Shown: piece after piece, positions 23,078 to 32,041 of the stretch
Numbering within the stretch: the stretch's first letter is position 1
Layout of the letters: the number at the start of each line of letters is the position of its first letter
DNA from: Acidimicrobiia bacterium
GTDB lineage: Bacteria > Actinomycetota > Acidimicrobiia > Acidimicrobiales > Poriferisodalaceae
DNA length: 64,000 nucleotides
Assembly (NCBI GenBank): GCA_022820925.1
Contig: JAJEEO010000019.1
Span: 62,001 to 126,000, forward strand
Reading direction: 5' to 3'
Translations under genes and position numbers: made by a program
The notes under the pieces: model-generated
The model's database searches: none
What the model was told of the DNA's origin: nothing
The model's input: the letters and a program-made list of their open reading frames with translations, nothing else

Positions 23078-23992
23078 ATGAGCGGCACGTTGGACCTCAC
23101 TGCGAACGAAACTGAGCTTCAGCGGTATCTCGACGAAGTCGATGAGAACGGCTACTGCATTGTCGAAGGCGCCATCGAGCCCGAGCTGGTCACCGACATC
23201 CGCGAGACCGTCGCCCGGGTCGAGGACGAGCTGAACGTGCAGCCGAAGGGCAACCGCATCGAGGGGTTCGCCACCAAGCGCATGTACAACCTGCTTCACA
23301 AGGACCGGTCGTTCTGGAAGCTGCCGGTCCACCGCAACGTGCTGCCGTTCCCGCAGCAGCTGATGGAGCCCGGGGCGATCCTGTCGGGCACCACCTGCAT
23401 GCACATCGGCCCCGGCGAGGTGCACCAGGGCCTGCATTCCGACGACGGTCTCGTCGATCAGATCGACGTGCCGAGGCCCCGCCCGCCGTTCATGGTCACC
23501 ACCATCTGGGCATTCACCGACTTCACCGACCGCAACGGCGCGACCCGTCTCGTGCCCGGCTCGCATCGCTTCGACCACGAGCCCCAGCCGGGCGAGAAGC
23601 CCGAGTACATCGCGGCCGAGATGCCGGCCGGCTCAGTGCTGATCGTGAACGGCGGCACCTGGCACTGCGGCGGCGCCAACACGTCCGAGGACGACTGGCG
23701 GCTGGGCATCAGCGTGCAGTACTGCCGTGGCTGGATGCGCCAGCAGCAGAACCAGTACTACAGCCTCGCCCCCGAAGACGTCCGTGAGATGCCCGACGAG
23801 CTGGCGGCGCTGTGCGGATTCAGCCTGTACCGGGGGATCATGGGCCACGTTGACGGCGCCAGCCCCGGCCGGTTCCTCGGGGCCGAGGGCCTCGCCGAGA
23901 CCGCGTACGCAGCCCGGATCAAGGCCATCGACGAGGGCGAGCAAGTCGGCGGCATCGGCACGGCCGAGCCTGAAGCTGCTGCTGCGGACTGA
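23078..23992 (+). CDS. Phytanoyl-CoA dioxygenase (PhyH) family protein
   Basis: A 304-residue iron(II)/2-oxoglutarate oxygenase. The facial triad can be placed at H120 and D122 (HSDD) and H196 (TWHCGG), with a likely 2-oxoglutarate-binding Arg in DDWRLGI about 12 residues later. The N-terminal DENGYCIVEGAI is characteristic of PhyH proteins. Family members hydroxylate fatty acyl groups, ectoine, phosphonates or halogenate natural products; no discriminating context exists. It starts 27 bp after the glycosyltransferase and precedes an SDR. Confidence 0.87.
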   Translation: MSGTLDLTANETELQRYLDEVDENGYCIVEGAIEPELVTDIRETVARVEDELNVQPKGNRIEGFATKRMYNLLHKDRSFWKLPVHRNVLPFPQQLMEPGAILSGTTCMHIGPGEVHQGLHSDDGLVDQIDVPRPRPPFMVTTIWAFTDFTDRNGATRLVPGSHRFDHEPQPGEKPEYIAAEMPAGSVLIVNGGTWHCGGANTSEDDWRLGISVQYCRGWMRQQQNQYYSLAPEDVREMPDELAALCGFSLYRGIMGHVDGASPGRFLGAEGLAETAYAARIKAIDEGEQVGGIGTAEPEAAAAD

Positions 23993-24100: not shown

Positions 24101-24877
24101 ATGGAACTGCGTGATCGGGTTGCGATCATCACGGGCGGGGGAGGCGGCATCGGCGGGGCCACAGCCCGGCGCTGGATGGCCGAGGGCGCGCGGCACATCG
24201 TCGTCGCCGATTACAAGGCCGAGGCTGCGCACGCCGTAGCGGACGAGATCGGCTGCGAGGGCGTCGGGCTCGACGTCACCGACGAAGCGGCCGTTGCCGA
24301 TCTGGTCGAACGCACGCTTGACGCGCACGGCCCGATCGACGTCTTTTTCTCCAACGCCGGCGCCGGCGCCGACGGCGGCGTGGATGCCTCCAACGACGCA
24401 TGGCAGTCCCAATGGGAGCTGCACGTGATGAGCCATGTGTACGCAGCCCGCGCCGTGCTGCCGTCGATGCTTGCCCGGGGCGAGGGCTATCTCGTGCACA
24501 CCGCCAGCGCCGCTGGATTGCTCGCAGCGATGGGCTCGGCGCCCTACTCGGTAACCAAGGCAGCCTGCATCAAGCTGGCCGAGATGGAGGCGATCCTGCA
24601 CGGCGATGACGGCATCCGGGTCTCGGTGCTGTGCCCGCAGGGCGTGAACACCGCCATGGCCCCGCAGCGACTCGCCGATGGCGGCACCGACGGAATCGTG
24701 GAGCCCGAGTTCGTCGCCGAGGTCATCACCCAAGCCATGGCCGAGGAGCGGTTTCTGATTCTCTCCCACCCCGAGGCCCAGACCTACGTCGAGCGCAAAG
24801 CCTCCGACCCCGATCGCTGGCTCAGAGGCATGCGCCGCCTCCGCCAACGCTCCCTCGATGTCGAGGAATCCGCTTAG
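24101..24877 (+). CDS. Short-chain dehydrogenase/reductase
   Basis: A 258-residue SDR with a good GGAGCGAGGG ribosome binding site. Cofactor loop TGGGGGIGG, SNAG in place of the usual NNAG, Ser in TASAAG and YSVTK are visible. The C-terminus lacks the usual VDGG and instead ends in a basic helix (RWLRGMRRLRQR), resembling SDRs of the fatty-acid/steroid-modifying type. Asp in VADYKAE suggests NAD. It sits 47 bp upstream of the selenoprotein gene and may be co-transcribed with it. Confidence 0.86.
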   Translation: MELRDRVAIITGGGGGIGGATARRWMAEGARHIVVADYKAEAAHAVADEIGCEGVGLDVTDEAAVADLVERTLDAHGPIDVFFSNAGAGADGGVDASNDAWQSQWELHVMSHVYAARAVLPSMLARGEGYLVHTASAAGLLAAMGSAPYSVTKAACIKLAEMEAILHGDDGIRVSVLCPQGVNTAMAPQRLADGGTDGIVEPEFVAEVITQAMAEERFLILSHPEAQTYVERKASDPDRWLRGMRRLRQRSLDVEESA

Positions 24878-24924: not shown

Positions 24925-26070
24925 ATGGCTGATTCCGACATCAAGGCGCTGACGGGCGGTCTCGAACTGCCCGACTTTGAGTCAACCGCGTTCACCACGC
25001 CCCCGCCCCTGGCCGAAGCCAAGGTCGCCATCGTGACCTCGGCATCGCTGCACCACCCCGACCAGGACGACTTCTCGCCGATGGACACCGGTTACCGGGT
25101 GCTCGACGGCGGCCGGCGCGACTACATGTGCGGCCACTGGAGCCCCAATTTCGATGCCACGGGCATCGCGCTCGACCTCAACACCGTGTTCCCCATCGAC
25201 CGACTCGACGAACTCGCCGCCGACGGCACCATCGGCAGCGTCTCCGACATCCACCTGTCCTATGCCGGCAACCAGTTCGACCTGTCCGCCGTGCGGATGG
25301 ACTCCGGGCCGGCGGGTGCGAAGTTCCTGCGTGATCACGAGGTTGACGTCGCGCTGTTCACGCCCGTCTGACCGCTGTGCACGCGTACCGTGAGTACGCT
25401 CGCCCATGTCTTCGAGGAAGCCGGGATCGCCACGGTGGCACTGGGCTCGATCGGCGCACACATCCAGGGAACTGCCCCGCCGCGCGGGCTTTGGTGCGAA
25501 TTCCCGTTGGGACGCCCGCTCGGCAAGCCCAACGACCCGGAATTCCAGCACCGTGTCCTGGCACACGCCTTTGGGCTGCTCGGCTCGTCCGAGCCTGTCG
25601 TGGAGAAGTTCGCGGATGCGATCACCGACGACGGCACCGAAACGATGGTGTGCGAGCTGCCGCCTCGCCACGACCCCAGCCTGCATCCTGCAGTCGACGA
25701 GGCCAACGGCCTGCGCCCGGCCTACGACCGGGCGGTGGCCAAGCTCGGGAACCGCACCGGCGCCGGCCGGACCGTGGCCGCCGACGACATCGGCGCCGCC
25801 GTGCTGGCCTTCACCAAGATCGCCGAGGGCACGCCGTGGAAGGAAGCCGGCATCCCGGGCATCCCCGCACGGGTGGCCCAGGACATCCGCGGCTACTACG
25901 AGACCGCTGCGCTGGCGCTGGCCGAGCACGCTCCCGCCGCATGGGCAGGTGCTCGCTGGTTCTTCACCTCGACCGAGGCAGGGCGTGCCATCGTCGATGC
26001 CCGCCAAGCCATGGCCGACGCCGGCGAGAAGCACCCGATCTGGTTCTACATCACCCCTGGCGACATGTAG
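24925..26070 (+). CDS. Selenoprotein of the GrdB/PrdB (glycine/betaine/sarcosine/D-proline reductase) family, in-frame TGA
   Basis: One continuous frame of 381 residues if TGA at 25369-25371 (codon 149) is read as selenocysteine. The junction reads ALFTPV-U-PLCTRTV, a UxxC redox motif matching, from memory, the site in GrdB (U-G-T-C-T-R-C-G) and PrdB-like proteins. Sequence resembling this family lies on both sides: FPIDRLDELAADGTIGSVSD before and EEAGIATVALGSI after. A SECIS-like hairpin follows the TGA. In clostridia the family forms the selenoprotein subunit of Stickland reductases; here no grdA, grdC/D or prdA neighbours occur, so the reaction is unknown. Flanked by an SDR and an MFS permease. 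Standard gene calling would split it into 24925-25371 and 25390-26070. Confidence 0.85.
25383..25399 (+). promoter_or_regulatory. SECIS-like hairpin of the GrdB/PrdB-like gene
   Basis: A perfect 6-bp stem GCGTAC/GTACGC closes a 5-nt loop CGTGA, 17 nt in all. It begins exactly 11 nt after the in-frame TGA, as in the E. coli fdhF minimal SECIS, and its loop carries the GU expected for SelB contact. Two further G-C pairs below an internal 2x2 mismatch lengthen the stem. Confidence 0.75.
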
Positions 26071-26153: not shown

Positions 26154-27455
26154 GTGCTGATCGGCCGTCCGTTTCACGGCTGGCGCGTGGCGTGGGCCGG
26201 GTTCTGGGTGCTGTTCATCGTCTACGGCCTGCAGTTCAGCTACGGCACGTTCGAAGGAGCCATCAGCGCAGACACCGGCTGGTCGACCAACTGGCTGCAG
26301 CTCGCGTACGCGCTGTACATCCTCAGCTACAGCGCGATCAGCGTGTGGAGCGGGCAGCTCACCGACCGCATCGGCCCCCGTCAGGTCATCGCCACCGGCG
26401 CCCTGCTGCTGGCCGGCGGCTACCTGGTGCTGTCGTCCGCGCCGAACCTGGCGCTGGTATTCGTCGGGCTGGCGGTGATCGCGCCGCTGGGCATGTCGTC
26501 GTCGTGGGTGCCCGCCAATGCGACCGTCGTGCGCTGGTTCACTGCTCGGCGCGGCTTGGCGACCGGCATCGTGGGCTCGGGTGGCAGTGCCGGGGGCATC
26601 GTCGCACCGCCGATCGCTGCGTGGCTCGTCTCGCAGTTCGGCTGGCGCACGGCAATCGCCGTGATGGCCGTTGTGGGCGGCGCATTCATGGCGGCCACGG
26701 CCATGCTGTTCGTGCGCGATCCAGAGTCGATCAGCCAGCATCCCGACGGTCGCACGCCCGCTCGCGCCGAGCGCCCCCTCGCCCGCTCGCGGGTCGTGTC
26801 GAGGCCGGCGGGATTCGTCGTGGAAGCCACCCGCGGCAGCGTCGAGGACGCCGAGAATCCCCGCACGGCGTGGACGGCCTCCGCAGCGTGGCGCACCTCG
26901 GTGTTCTGGCGCATCTTCGGCATGTTCGCCCTGACCTTCGTCGTGGTGTTCGTGCCGTTCGCGCACGGCGTGCAGTACGCCCGCAGCCTCGGCTTCTCGT
27001 TGCAGTGGGCGTCGGGCGTCATCAGCTCGGTCGGCCTCGGCGGCCTCGTGGGGCGCATCGTGACCGGCCCGCTGTCGGACCGCATCGACCGCCGCCGAGC
27101 CATCGCCCTGGCGCTGGCGGTCGAGACGCTGTCGTTCGTCGGCATCGCAGTGGCCGACACACTGGTGCTGCTGTACGTCTCGGCCATCGCGTTCGGCATG
27201 TCGTACGGCGGCAGCGTGGCGGTCTTCCCGGCGCTGGTCGCCGACTACTTCGGCCGTACCCACGCCGGTGCGATCGTCGGCCGCTTCTTCGCGACCGCCG
27301 GGTCGTGCGCCGCGATCGGGCCCTACGTGGCGCAGTTGCTGCTGAATGCCACGGGGGGCTATGGCTGGACCTTCACGATGGCGGCAGTTGCCAACGCCTG
27401 CGCACTGGGCCTGGCGTTCACGCTGCCCCGGCCCGGTCTGCTGCCCAAGCGCTGA
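26154..27455 (+). CDS. MFS transporter, monocarboxylate/oxalate-formate type
   Basis: A 433-residue, 12-segment permease from GTG 26154. The opening HGWRVAWAGFWVLFIVYGLQFSYGTF in outline, GQLTDRIGPRQV loop motif and RRGLATGIVGSGGSAGG segment are typical of the OxlT/MCT-like branch carrying small carboxylates. A long hydrophilic linker (about residues 195-250) joins the halves. It follows the selenoprotein gene by 83 bp, so it could move that enzyme's substrate or product; this is inference. Confidence 0.86.
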   Translation: MLIGRPFHGWRVAWAGFWVLFIVYGLQFSYGTFEGAISADTGWSTNWLQLAYALYILSYSAISVWSGQLTDRIGPRQVIATGALLLAGGYLVLSSAPNLALVFVGLAVIAPLGMSSSWVPANATVVRWFTARRGLATGIVGSGGSAGGIVAPPIAAWLVSQFGWRTAIAVMAVVGGAFMAATAMLFVRDPESISQHPDGRTPARAERPLARSRVVSRPAGFVVEATRGSVEDAENPRTAWTASAAWRTSVFWRIFGMFALTFVVVFVPFAHGVQYARSLGFSLQWASGVISSVGLGGLVGRIVTGPLSDRIDRRRAIALALAVETLSFVGIAVADTLVLLYVSAIAFGMSYGGSVAVFPALVADYFGRTHAGAIVGRFFATAGSCAAIGPYVAQLLLNATGGYGWTFTMAAVANACALGLAFTLPRPGLLPKR

Positions 27456-27579
27456 TTCGCAGCGTCGCGCCGAGCCAGCCAAAGGTGAGCGCTCTCGTTT
27501 CACCGGCGGCAAATCGGGCTGACGGGTAGCCTCGCAGGTGGCCGCCGCACCCGCCGCCGCGGCGCATGAGGGGGATTCG

Positions 27580-30500
27580 ATGGCTCTCGCAGACTTCAAG
27601 CTCGAAGATCGCTTCGACCGTATGGAAGGCGACGTCGCGATGTCGGGCGTGCAGGCGCTGCTGCGCGTGCTGCTGGACCAGCTTCGTGCCGACCGCCGTG
27701 ACGGGTTGAACAACGCTGCGATGGTGTCGGGCTACCGCGGATCGCCGCTGGGCGGCATCGACTCGCTGATGCTCGGCAACGCCGAGGAGCTGAAGCAGAA
27801 CAACATCATGTTCGAGCCCGGTCTCAACGAAGACCTCGGCGCCACGATCGTGTGGGGCAGCCAGCTCGCCAATCGCAACTTCCAGGGCCGCTACGACGGC
27901 GTGCTGGGCATGTGGTACGGCAAGGCCCCCGGCGTCGACCGCTCCGGCGATGCGATCAAGCACGCCAACGTCTGCGGCGTCGACCCCAAGGGCGGCGTGC
28001 TGCTCGTAGCCGGCGACGACCCGGCGTCGAAGTCCTCCACGCTGGCGTCGGAGTCCGAGCCGGTCCTGATCCACTACCAGACGCCGATCCTGTATCCCGG
28101 GTCGGTGCAGGAGGTCATCGACTACGGGCGCTGGGGCTTCGAGCTGTCCCGCTACAGCGGCTTCTGGTCGGCGCTCAAGATCGTCACCAACGTGGCAGAC
28201 GGCTACGCGACGGTGCAGGTCGGCCCTGGCCGCGTGTCGGTGGCCCGCCCTGAGTTCGACTGGGAGGGCAAGCCCTGGGCGCATACCCAGCAGGACGCCC
28301 TGTTCGGCCCCAACGCGGTGCGCATGGAGCTCGAGATCCACGAGGGCCGCATGGTCGCGGTCGACAAATTCGTCGCAGCCAACAAGCTCAACTGCCAGAC
28401 GCTTCCCACCCGCGATGCCCGGATCGGGCTCGTCGCTGCGGGCAAGACCTACTACGACCTGCGCGAGGCGCTCGACCGCATGGGACTCGACGACTTCGAG
28501 CTGGAGCGCCGGGGCGTGCGCATCTGGAAGCCAGCGGTGGTGTGGCCGCTCGAGCCCACCAGCGTGCGCGAATTCGCCGACGGGCTTGACCTGATCGTCG
28601 CCGTGGAGGAGAAGCGCTCGATCATCGAGTCGCTCATCAAGGAGAACCTCTACGGCATGCCCGACGCGCCCGTCGTGCTCGGCAAGCGCGATCAGCAGGG
28701 CGGCTTCTGGTTCCCCGGCCACGGCGAGATGGACGCCGATCTCATCGCCCGCAAGATCCGTCCGTTCCTGGTGGACCGGCTCGGTCCCGAAGGCATCGGG
28801 CCCGCTGTGCCCGAGCGCATCACGATCCCGCTCGCGGTCACCACCTCGAAGGGCGAGAAGGCCGCCGGCCGCACGCCGGGGTTCTGCTCGGGCTGCCCGC
28901 ACAACCGCTCGACCTGGGTGCCCGAGGGCTCCGAGGCAGGCGGCGGCATCGGCTGTCACGGCATGGCGGCCATGACGCCGACGCGCAACGTCCGCGGCAC
29001 CACCCAGATGGGCGGCGAGGGCTGCCAGTGGGTCGGCGCAGCGCCGTTCGTGACCATGGAGCACCGGTTCCAGAACATCGGCGACGGCACCTACCACCAC
29101 TCCGGTTCGCTGGCCCTGCGTCAGGCGGTGGCTGCAGGCACCAACGTCACCTACAAGATCCTCTTCAACGGCGCAGTGGCCATGACCGGCGGCCAGGACG
29201 TGGACGGCGGCATGGCCGTGCCCGAGCTCACTCGCTCGGTGCACGCCGAGGGCGTCGCCAAGGTGATGGTGGTCACCGACGACCCCAAGAAGTACCCCGC
29301 CGACGCGGAGTTCGCTCCCGACACCGAGATCTGGCACCGGGATCGCATGGATGAAGCACAGCGGCTGCTGCGCGACATCGAGGGCTGCACGGTGCTGATC
29401 TACGACCAGGCCTGCGCAGCCGAGCTGCGGCGCGACCGCAAGCGCGGCAAGGTGGCCGAGCCCACGATGCGGGTGTTCATCAACGAGGCGGTCTGCGAGG
29501 GCTGCGGCGACTGCGGCGAGAAGTCGAGCTGTCTGAGCGTGCAGCCCGTCGAGACCGAGTTCGGCCGCAAGACCCAGATCCACCAGTCGTCGTGCAACAA
29601 GGATTTCACCTGCCTCGACGGCGACTGCCCGGCGTTCATCGAGGTGGTGCCGGCGGGGAAGGTCCCCACCAAGGCCACCGTGGCCACCGAGCACATCGGC
29701 GACGACCTGCCCGAGCCTGACCGGATCGACGAGGGCAACATCTTGATGATGGGCATCGGCGGCACCGGGGTGGTGACCGTCAACCAGATGCTCGCCACCG
29801 CTGCGCTGCTCGACGGCAAGCAGGCCAACGGTCTCGACCAGACCGGTCTCGCCCAGAAGGGCGGCCCGGTGCTGTCGAACCTCAAGGTCCGGCGCCTCGG
29901 GGCGAACGGCGACGACACTCCCGCGGCGGATCACGACGGCGGCGACGAGGCCAACAAGGTCGGCGTCGGGGAGGCTGACGCCTACATCGTGTTCGACCTG
30001 CTGACCGGCACCAACCCGGCAAACCTCGACAAGGCGCTGGCCGGCAAGACCGTTGCCGTCGTGTCGTCGTCGAAGGTGCCCACCACGTCGATGGTGCGGG
30101 ACACCTCCGCCGAGTTCCCCGAGTGGACCGCCTTCCAGCGGGTCATCGACGAATCGACCAGCCCAGAGCGCAACGTCTACTTCGATGCGGGCACGCTGTC
30201 GGACAGCCTGTTCCGCTCGCACATGCCGGCCAACGTGCTGGTGGTGGGCGCCGCTTACCAGGCGGGCGTGGTGCCGATCAGCGCTTCTGCCATCGAGCGG
30301 GCCATCGAGCTGAACGGCGTTGCGGTGGAGATGAACACCCAGGCGTTCCGCATCGGCCGCAAGATCGTGCTCGACCCCGACTTCCTGGGGACCCTCGAGG
30401 TCGAGCGGGTCGGCAAGGTCAAGCGTGAGGTCGGACCGTCGAGGCGCGAGCAGGACCTGATCGACACGGTGCCCAACCAGTCTGAGGAACTGGCCCGGCT

Positions 30501-31101
30501 GATGCGCATCCGGGTGCCCGACCTGGTCGCCTACCAGAACCACGCATATGCAGCGGCGTACGCGTCCTTCATTGCCAAGGTGCGTGAGGCCGAGGCCGCT
30601 GCGGGCAGCGAGACGGCGCTCAGCGAGGCCGTGGCCACGTACCTCTACAAGCTGATGGCCTACAAGGACGAGTACGAGGTGGCCCGGCTGCACCGCTCGG
30701 CGGCGTTCAAGCAGGCTGTGCGCGACCAGTTCGGCGACAAGAGCGAGGTCACCTACAAGCTGCACCCGCCGATCATGCGGCGCATGGGCGTCGAGAAGAA
30801 GATCGGCCTCGGCCGCTCTGGCGACATGGCGTTCGCCTTGCTGGCGCGGATGAAGGGCCTGCGCGGCGGAGCGCTGGACGTCTTCGGCAGGACTGCACAC
30901 CGGAGGATGGAGCGGGAGCTGATCGACGAGTACCGCGGGATGATCGAGCGGGCACTCGACACGTTGGGCGCAGGCGACGATGCTGCCTACGCCCGAGCTG
31001 TGGAGATCGCGCGGCTGCCCGACATGATCCGCGGCTACGAGGAGATCAAAGAGAACAACGTCGAGCTGTTCCGGGCCCGCGCAGCCGAACTCGGCGCCTG
31101 A
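27580..31101 (+). CDS. Indolepyruvate ferredoxin oxidoreductase family protein (fused subunits)
   Basis: A 1173-residue single-chain 2-oxoacid:ferredoxin oxidoreductase. ATG 27580 has GGGGGA 5 nt upstream. Order of parts: pyrimidine-binding N-domain, thiamine diphosphate domain with FCSGCPHN (about 435), GGGIGCHGMAAM and GGEGCQWVG, a ferredoxin-like Cys cluster VCEGCGDCGEKSSC (about 638), then the gamma domain GIGGTGVVTVNQML (about 726). Such enzymes convert aryl-pyruvates to aryl-acetyl-CoA while reducing ferredoxin. An aldoxime dehydratase-like gene follows 10 bp later, suggesting a shared aromatic amino acid role. Confidence 0.9.
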   Translation: MALADFKLEDRFDRMEGDVAMSGVQALLRVLLDQLRADRRDGLNNAAMVSGYRGSPLGGIDSLMLGNAEELKQNNIMFEPGLNEDLGATIVWGSQLANRNFQGRYDGVLGMWYGKAPGVDRSGDAIKHANVCGVDPKGGVLLVAGDDPASKSSTLASESEPVLIHYQTPILYPGSVQEVIDYGRWGFELSRYSGFWSALKIVTNVADGYATVQVGPGRVSVARPEFDWEGKPWAHTQQDALFGPNAVRMELEIHEGRMVAVDKFVAANKLNCQTLPTRDARIGLVAAGKTYYDLREALDRMGLDDFELERRGVRIWKPAVVWPLEPTSVREFADGLDLIVAVEEKRSIIESLIKENLYGMPDAPVVLGKRDQQGGFWFPGHGEMDADLIARKIRPFLVDRLGPEGIGPAVPERITIPLAVTTSKGEKAAGRTPGFCSGCPHNRSTWVPEGSEAGGGIGCHGMAAMTPTRNVRGTTQMGGEGCQWVGAAPFVTMEHRFQNIGDGTYHHSGSLALRQAVAAGTNVTYKILFNGAVAMTGGQDVDGGMAVPELTRSVHAEGVAKVMVVTDDPKKYPADAEFAPDTEIWHRDRMDEAQRLLRDIEGCTVLIYDQACAAELRRDRKRGKVAEPTMRVFINEAVCEGCGDCGEKSSCLSVQPVETEFGRKTQIHQSSCNKDFTCLDGDCPAFIEVVPAGKVPTKATVATEHIGDDLPEPDRIDEGNILMMGIGGTGVVTVNQMLATAALLDGKQANGLDQTGLAQKGGPVLSNLKVRRLGANGDDTPAADHDGGDEANKVGVGEADAYIVFDLLTGTNPANLDKALAGKTVAVVSSSKVPTTSMVRDTSAEFPEWTAFQRVIDESTSPERNVYFDAGTLSDSLFRSHMPANVLVVGAAYQAGVVPISASAIERAIELNGVAVEMNTQAFRIGRKIVLDPDFLGTLEVERVGKVKREVGPSRREQDLIDTVPNQSEELARLMRIRVPDLVAYQNHAYAAAYASFIAKVREAEAAAGSETALSEAVATYLYKLMAYKDEYEVARLHRSAAFKQAVRDQFGDKSEVTYKLHPPIMRRMGVEKKIGLGRSGDMAFALLARMKGLRGGALDVFGRTAHRRMERELIDEYRGMIERALDTLGAGDDAAYARAVEIARLPDMIRGYEEIKENNVELFRARAAELGA

Positions 31102-31111
31102 GCGGGTCGGC

Positions 31112-32041
31112 ATGGCTGCCAACCGGCCCGAGGGGCATACGCCCAGCGCACCGGCGTGGTGCGTGGTCGACTTTCCCGAGCTGACGGCCTATTCGATGGT
31201 CTTCTCGAAAGGGCCTGACAACGCCGATACCTTGTCCGCGCTGCAGGCGGCATTGACAGGCGGCGAGCACCGGCCTGATCATGTCGAGCGGGCCCGGGTG
31301 GTCAACTTCACCGAGGAGGGTGACGACGCCGAGGAAGCCCAAGGCGATGCCGAGACCGTGTTCATGGCCTACTGGGTCGATCCGGCGATCTACGAGCGCT
31401 GGCGGGACGGCTGCGGCGTGCTCGAACGCGACGGGGTCTATTGCGAGACGGCCGTCATTCCGGCGGAGCGCTGGGAGACAATTGCCGGCACCAAGCGGCC
31501 GCTGCCGGGCGTGCGCAACCTGACGTCGGTGGACCTCACCGAGCTGCACGACTACTGGGGCGCTGCGCGAGATCGCATGGCCGCCAGCGCAGACGACCCG
31601 TTCGATGCCGCGCCGGGCTCGCCGCTGCCCGCCAATCTCTGCCTCATCCGCTCCGGTCAGAAGTGGGACGAGTGCCTCGACGACGAGCGCGATATGTACT
31701 TCACCGACATCGAGCCGAAGCTGCGGGCCGGCATCGAGTTCTTGGCCGCCAACCGCGACTCCGGCTGCATCTCGAGCAGATTCCTGCGAGAGCAGTCCAT
31801 CGACGGCGAGGATCTCGAGTCCACGAGCTTCGTCGGCTGGTTCGACGACTTGGCGTCACTGGAAGCCTGGTCCCGGTCGCACTCCACGCACCTGGCGATC
31901 TTCCACTCGTTCCTGTCAACAGTGCATCTGTTGGGGCGCCCGCCCAAGCTGCGGCTGTGGCACGAAGTGTCGGTGCTGCCCGAAGGCGGCGTGGAACTGG
32001 TCAATACCGAGCTGTCCCCTTTGGCCGAGCTCATCTCCTGA
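31112..32041 (+). CDS. Aldoxime dehydratase (phenylacetaldoxime dehydratase) family protein
   Basis: A 309-residue protein matching haem-containing Oxd enzymes that dehydrate aldoximes to nitriles. The C-terminal signature is seen: LEAWSRSHSTHLAIFHSF, with H257 or H260 as candidate haem ligand, and LRLWHEVSVL with H284 as candidate distal histidine. Acidic central region and length fit the family (about 350) though slightly short. It begins 10 bp after the indolepyruvate oxidoreductase. No nitrilase or nitrile hydratase is adjacent. Assignment is by motif; catalytic activity is unproven. Confidence 0.8.
   Translation: MAANRPEGHTPSAPAWCVVDFPELTAYSMVFSKGPDNADTLSALQAALTGGEHRPDHVERARVVNFTEEGDDAEEAQGDAETVFMAYWVDPAIYERWRDGCGVLERDGVYCETAVIPAERWETIAGTKRPLPGVRNLTSVDLTELHDYWGAARDRMAASADDPFDAAPGSPLPANLCLIRSGQKWDECLDDERDMYFTDIEPKLRAGIEFLAANRDSGCISSRFLREQSIDGEDLESTSFVGWFDDLASLEAWSRSHSTHLAIFHSFLSTVHLLGRPPKLRLWHEVSVLPEGGVELVNTELSPLAELIS

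What the first reader, a model, noticed from the sequence alone, without database searches (positions are those of the whole stretch)
24925..26070. GrdB/PrdB-like gene reads through TGA as selenocysteine
Seen: the frame before and after TGA 25369-25371 is the same, with family-like sequence on both sides, and the junction gives U-P-L-C-T-R. Known: the GrdB/PrdB family carries selenocysteine in a UxxC motif. Seen: a 17-nt perfect hairpin with GU in its loop starts exactly 11 nt after TGA, as in the fdhF SECIS. Inference: a functional selenoprotein in an apparently aerobic high-GC actinobacterium, without the other Stickland reductase subunits.
Basis: partly seen in the sequence, partly recalled or inferred. 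Interest (0 to 1): 0.9.

Follow-up and report, generated by a model that had tools for sequence, protein, structure and literature searches.

The report
Genuine selenoprotein in an aerobic actinobacterium
The in-frame TGA in this gene is a real selenocysteine codon, kept with a covarying RNA hairpin in scores of relatives, so the gene very probably makes a selenium enzyme; such GrdB/PrdB-type selenoproteins have been known in sea bacteria since 2005, but this long, partnerless branch is not proline or glycine reductase and its substrate is unknown.

Summary
Confirmed. TGA 25369-25371 splits one 381-codon frame (24925-26070) and is read as selenocysteine (U149-P-L-C152). All 85 relatives first fetched, down to 33% identity, carry TGA at this codon; the few found later without it have TGC (Cys), never another sense codon. 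The hairpin 25383-25399 meets every criterion of the published bacterial SECIS model. It covaries (14 changes of one base pair on the tree; independent supported changes compensated), its five codons are the five least variable at synonymous sites of 143 conserved codons, and it is lost in the one full-length Cys orthologue. The genome has selA, selB, tRNA-Sec and a selD with its own Sec codon. The organism (order Acidimicrobiales) has haem-copper oxidase genes, so probably respires oxygen. The protein belongs to the GrdB/PrdB superfamily but is neither enzyme: 108 bits against a PrdB cut-off of 300, outside a fully supported clade of true PrdB, an extra C-terminal helical domain of about 145 residues, and no PrdA partner next door. 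Most likely it is a stand-alone Sec/Cys reductase or nucleophilic enzyme for a small metabolite; the substrate is unknown. Marine 'PrdB' selenoproteins are known from 2005 and 2008 surveys, so this is a new member of a known kind.

The parts
24925..26070 (+). GrdB/PrdB-superfamily selenoprotein gene, 381 aa including Sec149
   Evidence: alignable end to end with relatives, start ATG agrees with relatives' MADxD start
25369..25371 (+). UGA read as selenocysteine (U149 of UPLC)
   Evidence: 85/85 relatives TGA; the rare exceptions are TGC
25378..25380 (+). Cys152, the second residue of the UxxC redox motif
   Evidence: invariant in 28 aligned relatives
25383..25399 (+). bacterial SECIS hairpin: 6-bp stem, CGUGA loop, loop begins 17 nt after UGA
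   Evidence: covariation, synonymous constraint, fits bSECIS model of PMC13188914
25627..26067 (+). C-terminal helical extension (about residues 235-381), absent from PrdB (238-position model)
   Evidence: no PDB fold match by Foldseek
23078..23992 (+). PhyH-family 2-oxoglutarate dioxygenase, conserved neighbour
   Evidence: Pfam PF05721 87.7 bits; synteny
24101..24877 (+). short-chain dehydrogenase, conserved neighbour
26154..27455 (+). MFS transporter of the monocarboxylate / oxalate-formate type, conserved neighbour
   Evidence: NF049980 206 bits, TIGR00890 141 bits (both under cut-off); synteny
27538..31101 (+). fused indolepyruvate ferredoxin oxidoreductase-family protein, conserved neighbour
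   Evidence: NF009589 1411 bits; synteny

Best explanation
The gene encodes a functional selenoprotein. SelB binds the hairpin whose loop lies 17 nt downstream of UGA and delivers Sec-tRNA(Sec), giving a 381-residue protein with Sec149 and Cys152 at the N-terminal end of a helix that follows a beta strand of a Rossmann-like domain (shown: conservation, RNA covariation, decoding genes, structure model; inferred: actual translation). The Sec/Cys pair acts as a selenolate nucleophile or reductant that can form a selenenylsulfide with Cys152 and is recycled by cellular thiols, so that a small metabolite is reductively cleaved or reduced. It does this without the pyruvoyl partner (PrdA/GrdE) of Stickland reductases, its own C-terminal helical domain perhaps completing the active site (inference). 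The confidence refers to the selenoprotein claim; a Sec/Cys redox role is likely (about 0.8), a partnerless substrate reductase about 0.5, and no substrate can be named.
For: TGA conserved in 85/85 relatives of 33-98% identity from records labelled Actinomycetota, Chloroflexota and Pseudomonadota and in over 100 Acidimicrobiales hits. Hairpin: 98.1% of pair cells standard, 22 cells changed on both sides against 5.0 in shuffles; 14 changes of pair 18:28 on the tree, the 8 independent supported contrasts compensated (7.7 of 8 on average over random pairings, none the other way, median p 0.008). Codons 153-157 rank 1-5 of 143 in lowest synonymous entropy. Cys orthologue L116 keeps CPxC but lost the hairpin, 2/5 pairs. 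selA 395 bits, selB 272, tRNA-Sec 67 with anticodon tca, selD 356 with its own Sec codon. AlphaFold pLDDT 93.6, U149 just before helix 152-165. PrdB profile E 6.6e-31 over residues 27-215.
Against: No protein or selenium data. The window is from a draft genome assembly. The hairpin is not unusually stable against shuffles, and no Rfam family matches it. The function is inferred from the chemistry of relatives and from the motif; gene context is conserved only within the window's own family of bacteria.
Confidence: 0.96

Rival explanations
1. Pseudogene or sequencing error: the TGA is a true stop that truncates a Cys protein.
For: An in-frame stop is usually a broken gene; the assembly is a draft.
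Against: The same TGA stands in 85/85 relatives and in independent assemblies; sequence after the TGA is conserved as protein; the RNA hairpin is under selection.
Confidence: 0.01
2. A true PrdB: the Sec subunit of a D-proline reductase, in an organism that runs Stickland-type reduction under low oxygen.
For: PrdB is the best NCBIfam match (107.6 bits); metagenome surveys call such genes PrdB (PMC1088965, PMC2398784).
Against: Far under the 300-bit cut-off; true PrdB form a separate clade with 100% support, motif UGTCHR not UPLCTR, and PrdA within the fetched stretch in 6 of 6 loci against none of the fetched relatives; no PF09338 or GrdA hit in the genome; extra C-terminal domain.
Confidence: 0.05
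3. A Sec enzyme that cleaves a C-X bond of a small carboxylate brought in by the adjacent MFS carrier, like the GrdB-like FarB of fluoroacetate reduction (a special case of the best explanation).
For: The next gene is an MFS carrier of the lactate / oxalate-formate type, conserved next to the gene in close relatives; FarA of the farACEB operon is of the oxalate/formate antiporter subfamily beside a GrdB-like selenoprotein (PMC10838667).
Against: FarB is proposed to work with FarE, a GrdE homologue; none is found here. The carrier is not next door outside the window's own family.
Confidence: 0.2
4. A general thiol-disulfide or peroxide-defence selenoprotein, not an enzyme of a specific substrate.
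For: UxxC at a helix N-terminus, as in thioredoxin-like proteins; the neighbours differ between lineages.
Against: No thioredoxin-fold match came up (weak evidence); homology is to substrate reductases; in close relatives it sits among metabolic genes.
Confidence: 0.25

Closest known systems
D-proline reductase subunit PrdB (NCBIfam TIGR04483)
   Same: Homologous core (residues 27-215, E 6.6e-31), UGA-encoded Sec in UxxC
   Different: About 145 extra C-terminal residues, UPLCTR instead of UGTCHR, no PrdA beside it, outside the PrdB clade
Glycine/sarcosine/betaine reductase GrdB, GrdF, GrdH (PF07355, TIGR01917/01918)
   Same: Weaker homology to the C-terminal half of GrdB; UxxC Sec
   Different: Below every curated cut-off; GrdA and GrdE not found in the genome
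Marine 'Proline reductase PrdB, pfam07355, UxxC' selenoproteins of Sargasso Sea and GOS (PMC1088965, PMC2398784)
   Same: Sec UxxC proteins of this superfamily, abundant in surface sea water; very likely include this kind
   Different: Those surveys assigned the name by homology; whether their set holds this long form was not checked here
'glycine/sarcosine/betaine reductase selenoprotein B family protein' of the alphaproteobacteria Roseomonas and Haematobacter
   Same: Stand-alone, no PrdA beside it
   Different: Cys instead of Sec, shorter (about 300 aa), another branch of the tree
FarB of fluoroacetate reductase farACEB (PMC10838667)
   Same: GrdB-like Sec protein beside an oxalate/formate-type MFS carrier
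   Different: Has a GrdE-like FarE and a radical-SAM partner; found in anaerobic Synergistota

Membership tests
Bacterial selenoprotein | In-frame UGA conserved across orthologues, aligned with Cys in others | tested here: met
   85/85 TGA; TGC in L116, L125, L150
Bacterial selenoprotein | SECIS right after UGA: loop 3-9 nt, stem 4-16 bp, G in first two loop positions, UGA-loop spacing 16-37 nt, MFE at most -7.5 kcal/mol | tested here: met
   loop CGUGA 5 nt, stem 6 bp, G second then U, spacing 17 nt, -11.6 kcal/mol (criteria from PMC13188914)
Bacterial selenoprotein | selA, selB, selC, selD in the genome | tested here: met
Bacterial selenoprotein | Full-length Sec protein made in the cell | not testable with these tools
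   needs mass spectrometry or 75Se labelling
PrdB (D-proline reductase) | Score above the TIGR04483 cut-off (300 bits) | tested here: not met
   107.6 bits
PrdB (D-proline reductase) | PrdA proprotein encoded beside it | tested here: not met
   tblastn of two PrdA found none in the window or relatives' flanks, but found it in 6/6 PrdB loci
PrdB (D-proline reductase) | D-proline reduction | not testable with these tools
   biochemical assay needed
GrdB (glycine reductase) | Score above Pfam/NCBIfam GrdB cut-offs | tested here: not met
   PF07355 18 of 22 bits; TIGR01917 29 of 602, TIGR01918 31 of 65
GrdB (glycine reductase) | GrdA and GrdE in the genome | tested here: inconclusive
   no hit, but the PF09338 search rang in no control genome, and the genome is 95.6% complete; the PF09338 profile does detect PrdA
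GrdB/PrdB superfamily | Significant homology with UxxC in the same place | tested here: met
   PrdB profile E 6.6e-31; all 28 aligned relatives match five GrdB/PrdB models

The most novel reading that the evidence does not exclude
A distinct, widespread subfamily of GrdB/PrdB-like selenoenzymes has cut loose from the pyruvoyl Stickland system and, with its own C-terminal domain, carries out Sec-dependent reductive chemistry on an unknown small metabolite in organisms that respire oxygen.
Probability: 0.45. Interest if true: 0.6.

Novelty: new member of a known kind. Interest (0 to 1): 0.38.

Why it matters
A gene finder that knows only the standard stops cuts such genes at the UGA (one search shows this here). 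A common gene of Acidimicrobiales and other mostly uncultured bacteria is shown to be a true selenoprotein of a branch that looks like PrdB by homology although its genes lack the PrdA partner. That makes the function of a common environmental selenoprotein an open, testable question: what does a GrdB/PrdB-type selenolate do in an oxygen-respiring cell without a pyruvoyl partner?

Tried and rejected
Rfam search for a SECIS family: nothing, and SECIS_1 in the genome: nothing, controls also silent (RF00031 is, from memory, the eukaryotic model). Foldseek and VIA-align of the whole model: only generic Rossmann-like matches, best Z 7.6; C-terminal domain alone: no match better than E 2. PDB sequence searches: no convincing match. 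Gene neighbourhoods of 50-odd relatives: conserved only within the window's own family (PhyH-SDR-(EamA)-gene-MFS-IOR); elsewhere HutF/HutI, acyl-CoA dehydrogenases, or selA/selB/selD in SAR116, so context does not name a substrate. A possible second Sec in the paralogue L107 (YUVLC after residue 339) was rejected: sequence after that TGA diverges between species. Other in-frame TGAs in the window with a nearby Cys were listed; none was taken for a selenoprotein, judged by position only, not tested one by one.

Full report
OBSERVATION. The window holds one reading frame from ATG 24925 to TAG 26068-26070, interrupted by a single TGA at 25369-25371. Read-through gives 381 residues with the motif FTPV-U149-PLC152-TRT. 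Eleven nucleotides after the TGA comes a perfect 6-bp stem, GCGTAC/GTACGC, around the loop CGTGA (25383-25399).

THE TGA IS A CODON. A scan of bacterial genomes with the read-through product brought in 56 loci, and a search of 397 Acidimicrobiales genomes gave matches in 156, most of those listed with '1 TGA' inside an otherwise open frame. At the residue aligned with U149, 85 of 85 loci have TGA, at 33-98% identity, in records labelled Acidimicrobiia, Chloroflexota, gamma- and alphaproteobacteria (some bin labels may be wrong). A wider search of the phylum found the exceptions: L116 (43% identical, full length), L125 and L150 have TGC, cysteine. No other sense codon was seen. U149 and C152 are both invariant among 28 aligned relatives.

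THE HAIRPIN IS A SECIS. It meets every numerical criterion of the published bacterial SECIS model (loop 3-9 nt, stem 4-16 bp, G in the first two loop positions, spacing 16-37 nt, energy at most -7.5 kcal/mol; PMC13188914): loop 5, stem 6, G then U at loop positions 2-3, spacing 17, -11.6. Three lines show selection on the RNA. (a) Covariation: 98.1% of cells paired, 22 cells changed on both sides against 5.0 expected from shuffles, and far more than with the partner slid by 1-3 columns. On a protein tree built without the hairpin columns, the pair at columns 18:28 changed 14 times; of 8 independent supported contrasts, the partner base changed the matching way in 7.7 on average over random pairings and never the other way (median p 0.008). 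Some of these changes alter the amino acid in one codon and only a synonymous base in the other. (b) Synonymous constraint: among 143 codon positions with conserved residues, the five with the lowest synonymous entropy are codons 153-157, those of the hairpin. (c) Loss with the codon: the Cys orthologue L116 keeps CPMCTRT but only 2 of 5 inner pairs, whereas 64 of 70 distinct TGA sequences keep 5 of 5 and the rest 4 (background 1.2% with 5 of 5). Energy alone says nothing (z -0.24).

THE CELL CAN DECODE IT. The genome (3.28 Mb, 95.6% complete) has selA (395 bits, cut-off 268), selB (272, cut-off 242) and tRNA-Sec (67 bits; ARAGORN: anticodon tca) within about 15 kb on contig 10, and selD (356 bits) with its own in-frame TGA in GAGUACK. 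Two further PrdB-like genes with TGA in a UPVC motif lie on other contigs. Haem-copper oxidase genes are present and a PhyH-family (O2-dependent) dioxygenase lies two genes upstream, so oxygen respiration is likely.

WHAT THE PROTEIN IS. PrdB is the best family match (TIGR04483, E 6.6e-31, residues 27-215), but at 107.6 bits against a cut-off of 300; GrdB models match more weakly, all below cut-off. True PrdB genes, found on annotated plasmids, are about 240 codons long, read UGTCHR (one has C for U), and have PrdA in the same fetched stretch in six of six cases; tblastn with two PrdA proteins found none in the window or in any flank of the relatives. On a tree of the shared core, PrdB form one fully supported clade, and the window's protein lies in another (99%) with the long relatives. 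No GrdE/PrdA-type (PF09338) or GrdA protein was found in the genome; the PF09338 search rang in no control genome, but the profile does detect PrdA. The predicted structure is good (pLDDT 93.6): a Rossmann-like domain with U149-P-L-C152 between strand 142-146 and helix 152-165, followed by a helical C-terminal region for which Foldseek found no PDB match.

HOW IT PROBABLY WORKS. Shown: UGA is conserved as Sec and the SECIS is under selection. Inferred from established chemistry of GrdB/PrdB: Sec149 is a selenolate nucleophile that attacks or reduces a small substrate, is resolved by Cys152 and recycled by thiols. Without a pyruvoyl partner it cannot run the classical Stickland reaction as known. 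In close relatives the order PhyH - SDR - (EamA) - this gene - MFS carrier - indolepyruvate oxidoreductase is kept, which points to catabolism of a small acid or amino acid. The carrier is of the same broad type as FarA beside the GrdB-like FarB of fluoroacetate reduction (PMC10838667), a lead and not a test. Outside the window's own family the neighbours differ, so I name no substrate.

NOVELTY. 'Proline reductase PrdB' selenoproteins with UxxC were the third most abundant previously known family in the Sargasso Sea set (42 genes, PMC1088965) and 235 sequences in GOS (PMC2398784), so Sec in this superfamily in oxygenated water is known, and a 2016 survey found Sec use in aerobes as well as anaerobes (40.4% and 35.8%, PMC5029168). 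What is added here is that this long branch is separate from PrdB, has no Stickland partner beside it, and carries strong covariation evidence for its SECIS. I rate it a new member of a known kind; the open question is its substrate.

Noticed in passing
L107 1252-2268 (minus strand), own genome contig C6 around 139144-139800: A second PrdB-like gene with TGA in a UPVC motif (TIGR04483 165 bits, Pfam GRDB above cut-off); it ends at a second TGA after ...CLVCAGIDY, which is the true stop since sequence beyond it diverges between species.
   Followed up: yes
L109 1501-2115, own genome contig C7:159499-160113: A third PrdB-like gene with TGA in a UPVC motif and a hairpin CAGAC-GATCG-GTCTG in the same register as the SECIS.
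   Followed up: partly
L018 1501-2454, own genome contig C13:426129-427082: selD is itself a selenoprotein gene: TGA in GAGUACK.
   Followed up: partly
window 31112-32041: Haem-containing aldoxime dehydratase-like gene (PF13816 194 bits) 11 nt after the indolepyruvate oxidoreductase gene, perhaps the same operon.
   Followed up: no
L096-L102, L104, L106: In SAR116 and other alphaproteobacterial relatives the PrdB-like selenoprotein gene sits near selA, selB and/or selD.
   Followed up: no
L064, L068, L075, L076: In another set of relatives the neighbours include HutF, HutI, a possible 2-oxoglutarate oxygenase and an FrhB-like protein (names by eye from sequence), suggesting a link with imidazole or histidine breakdown.
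   Followed up: no
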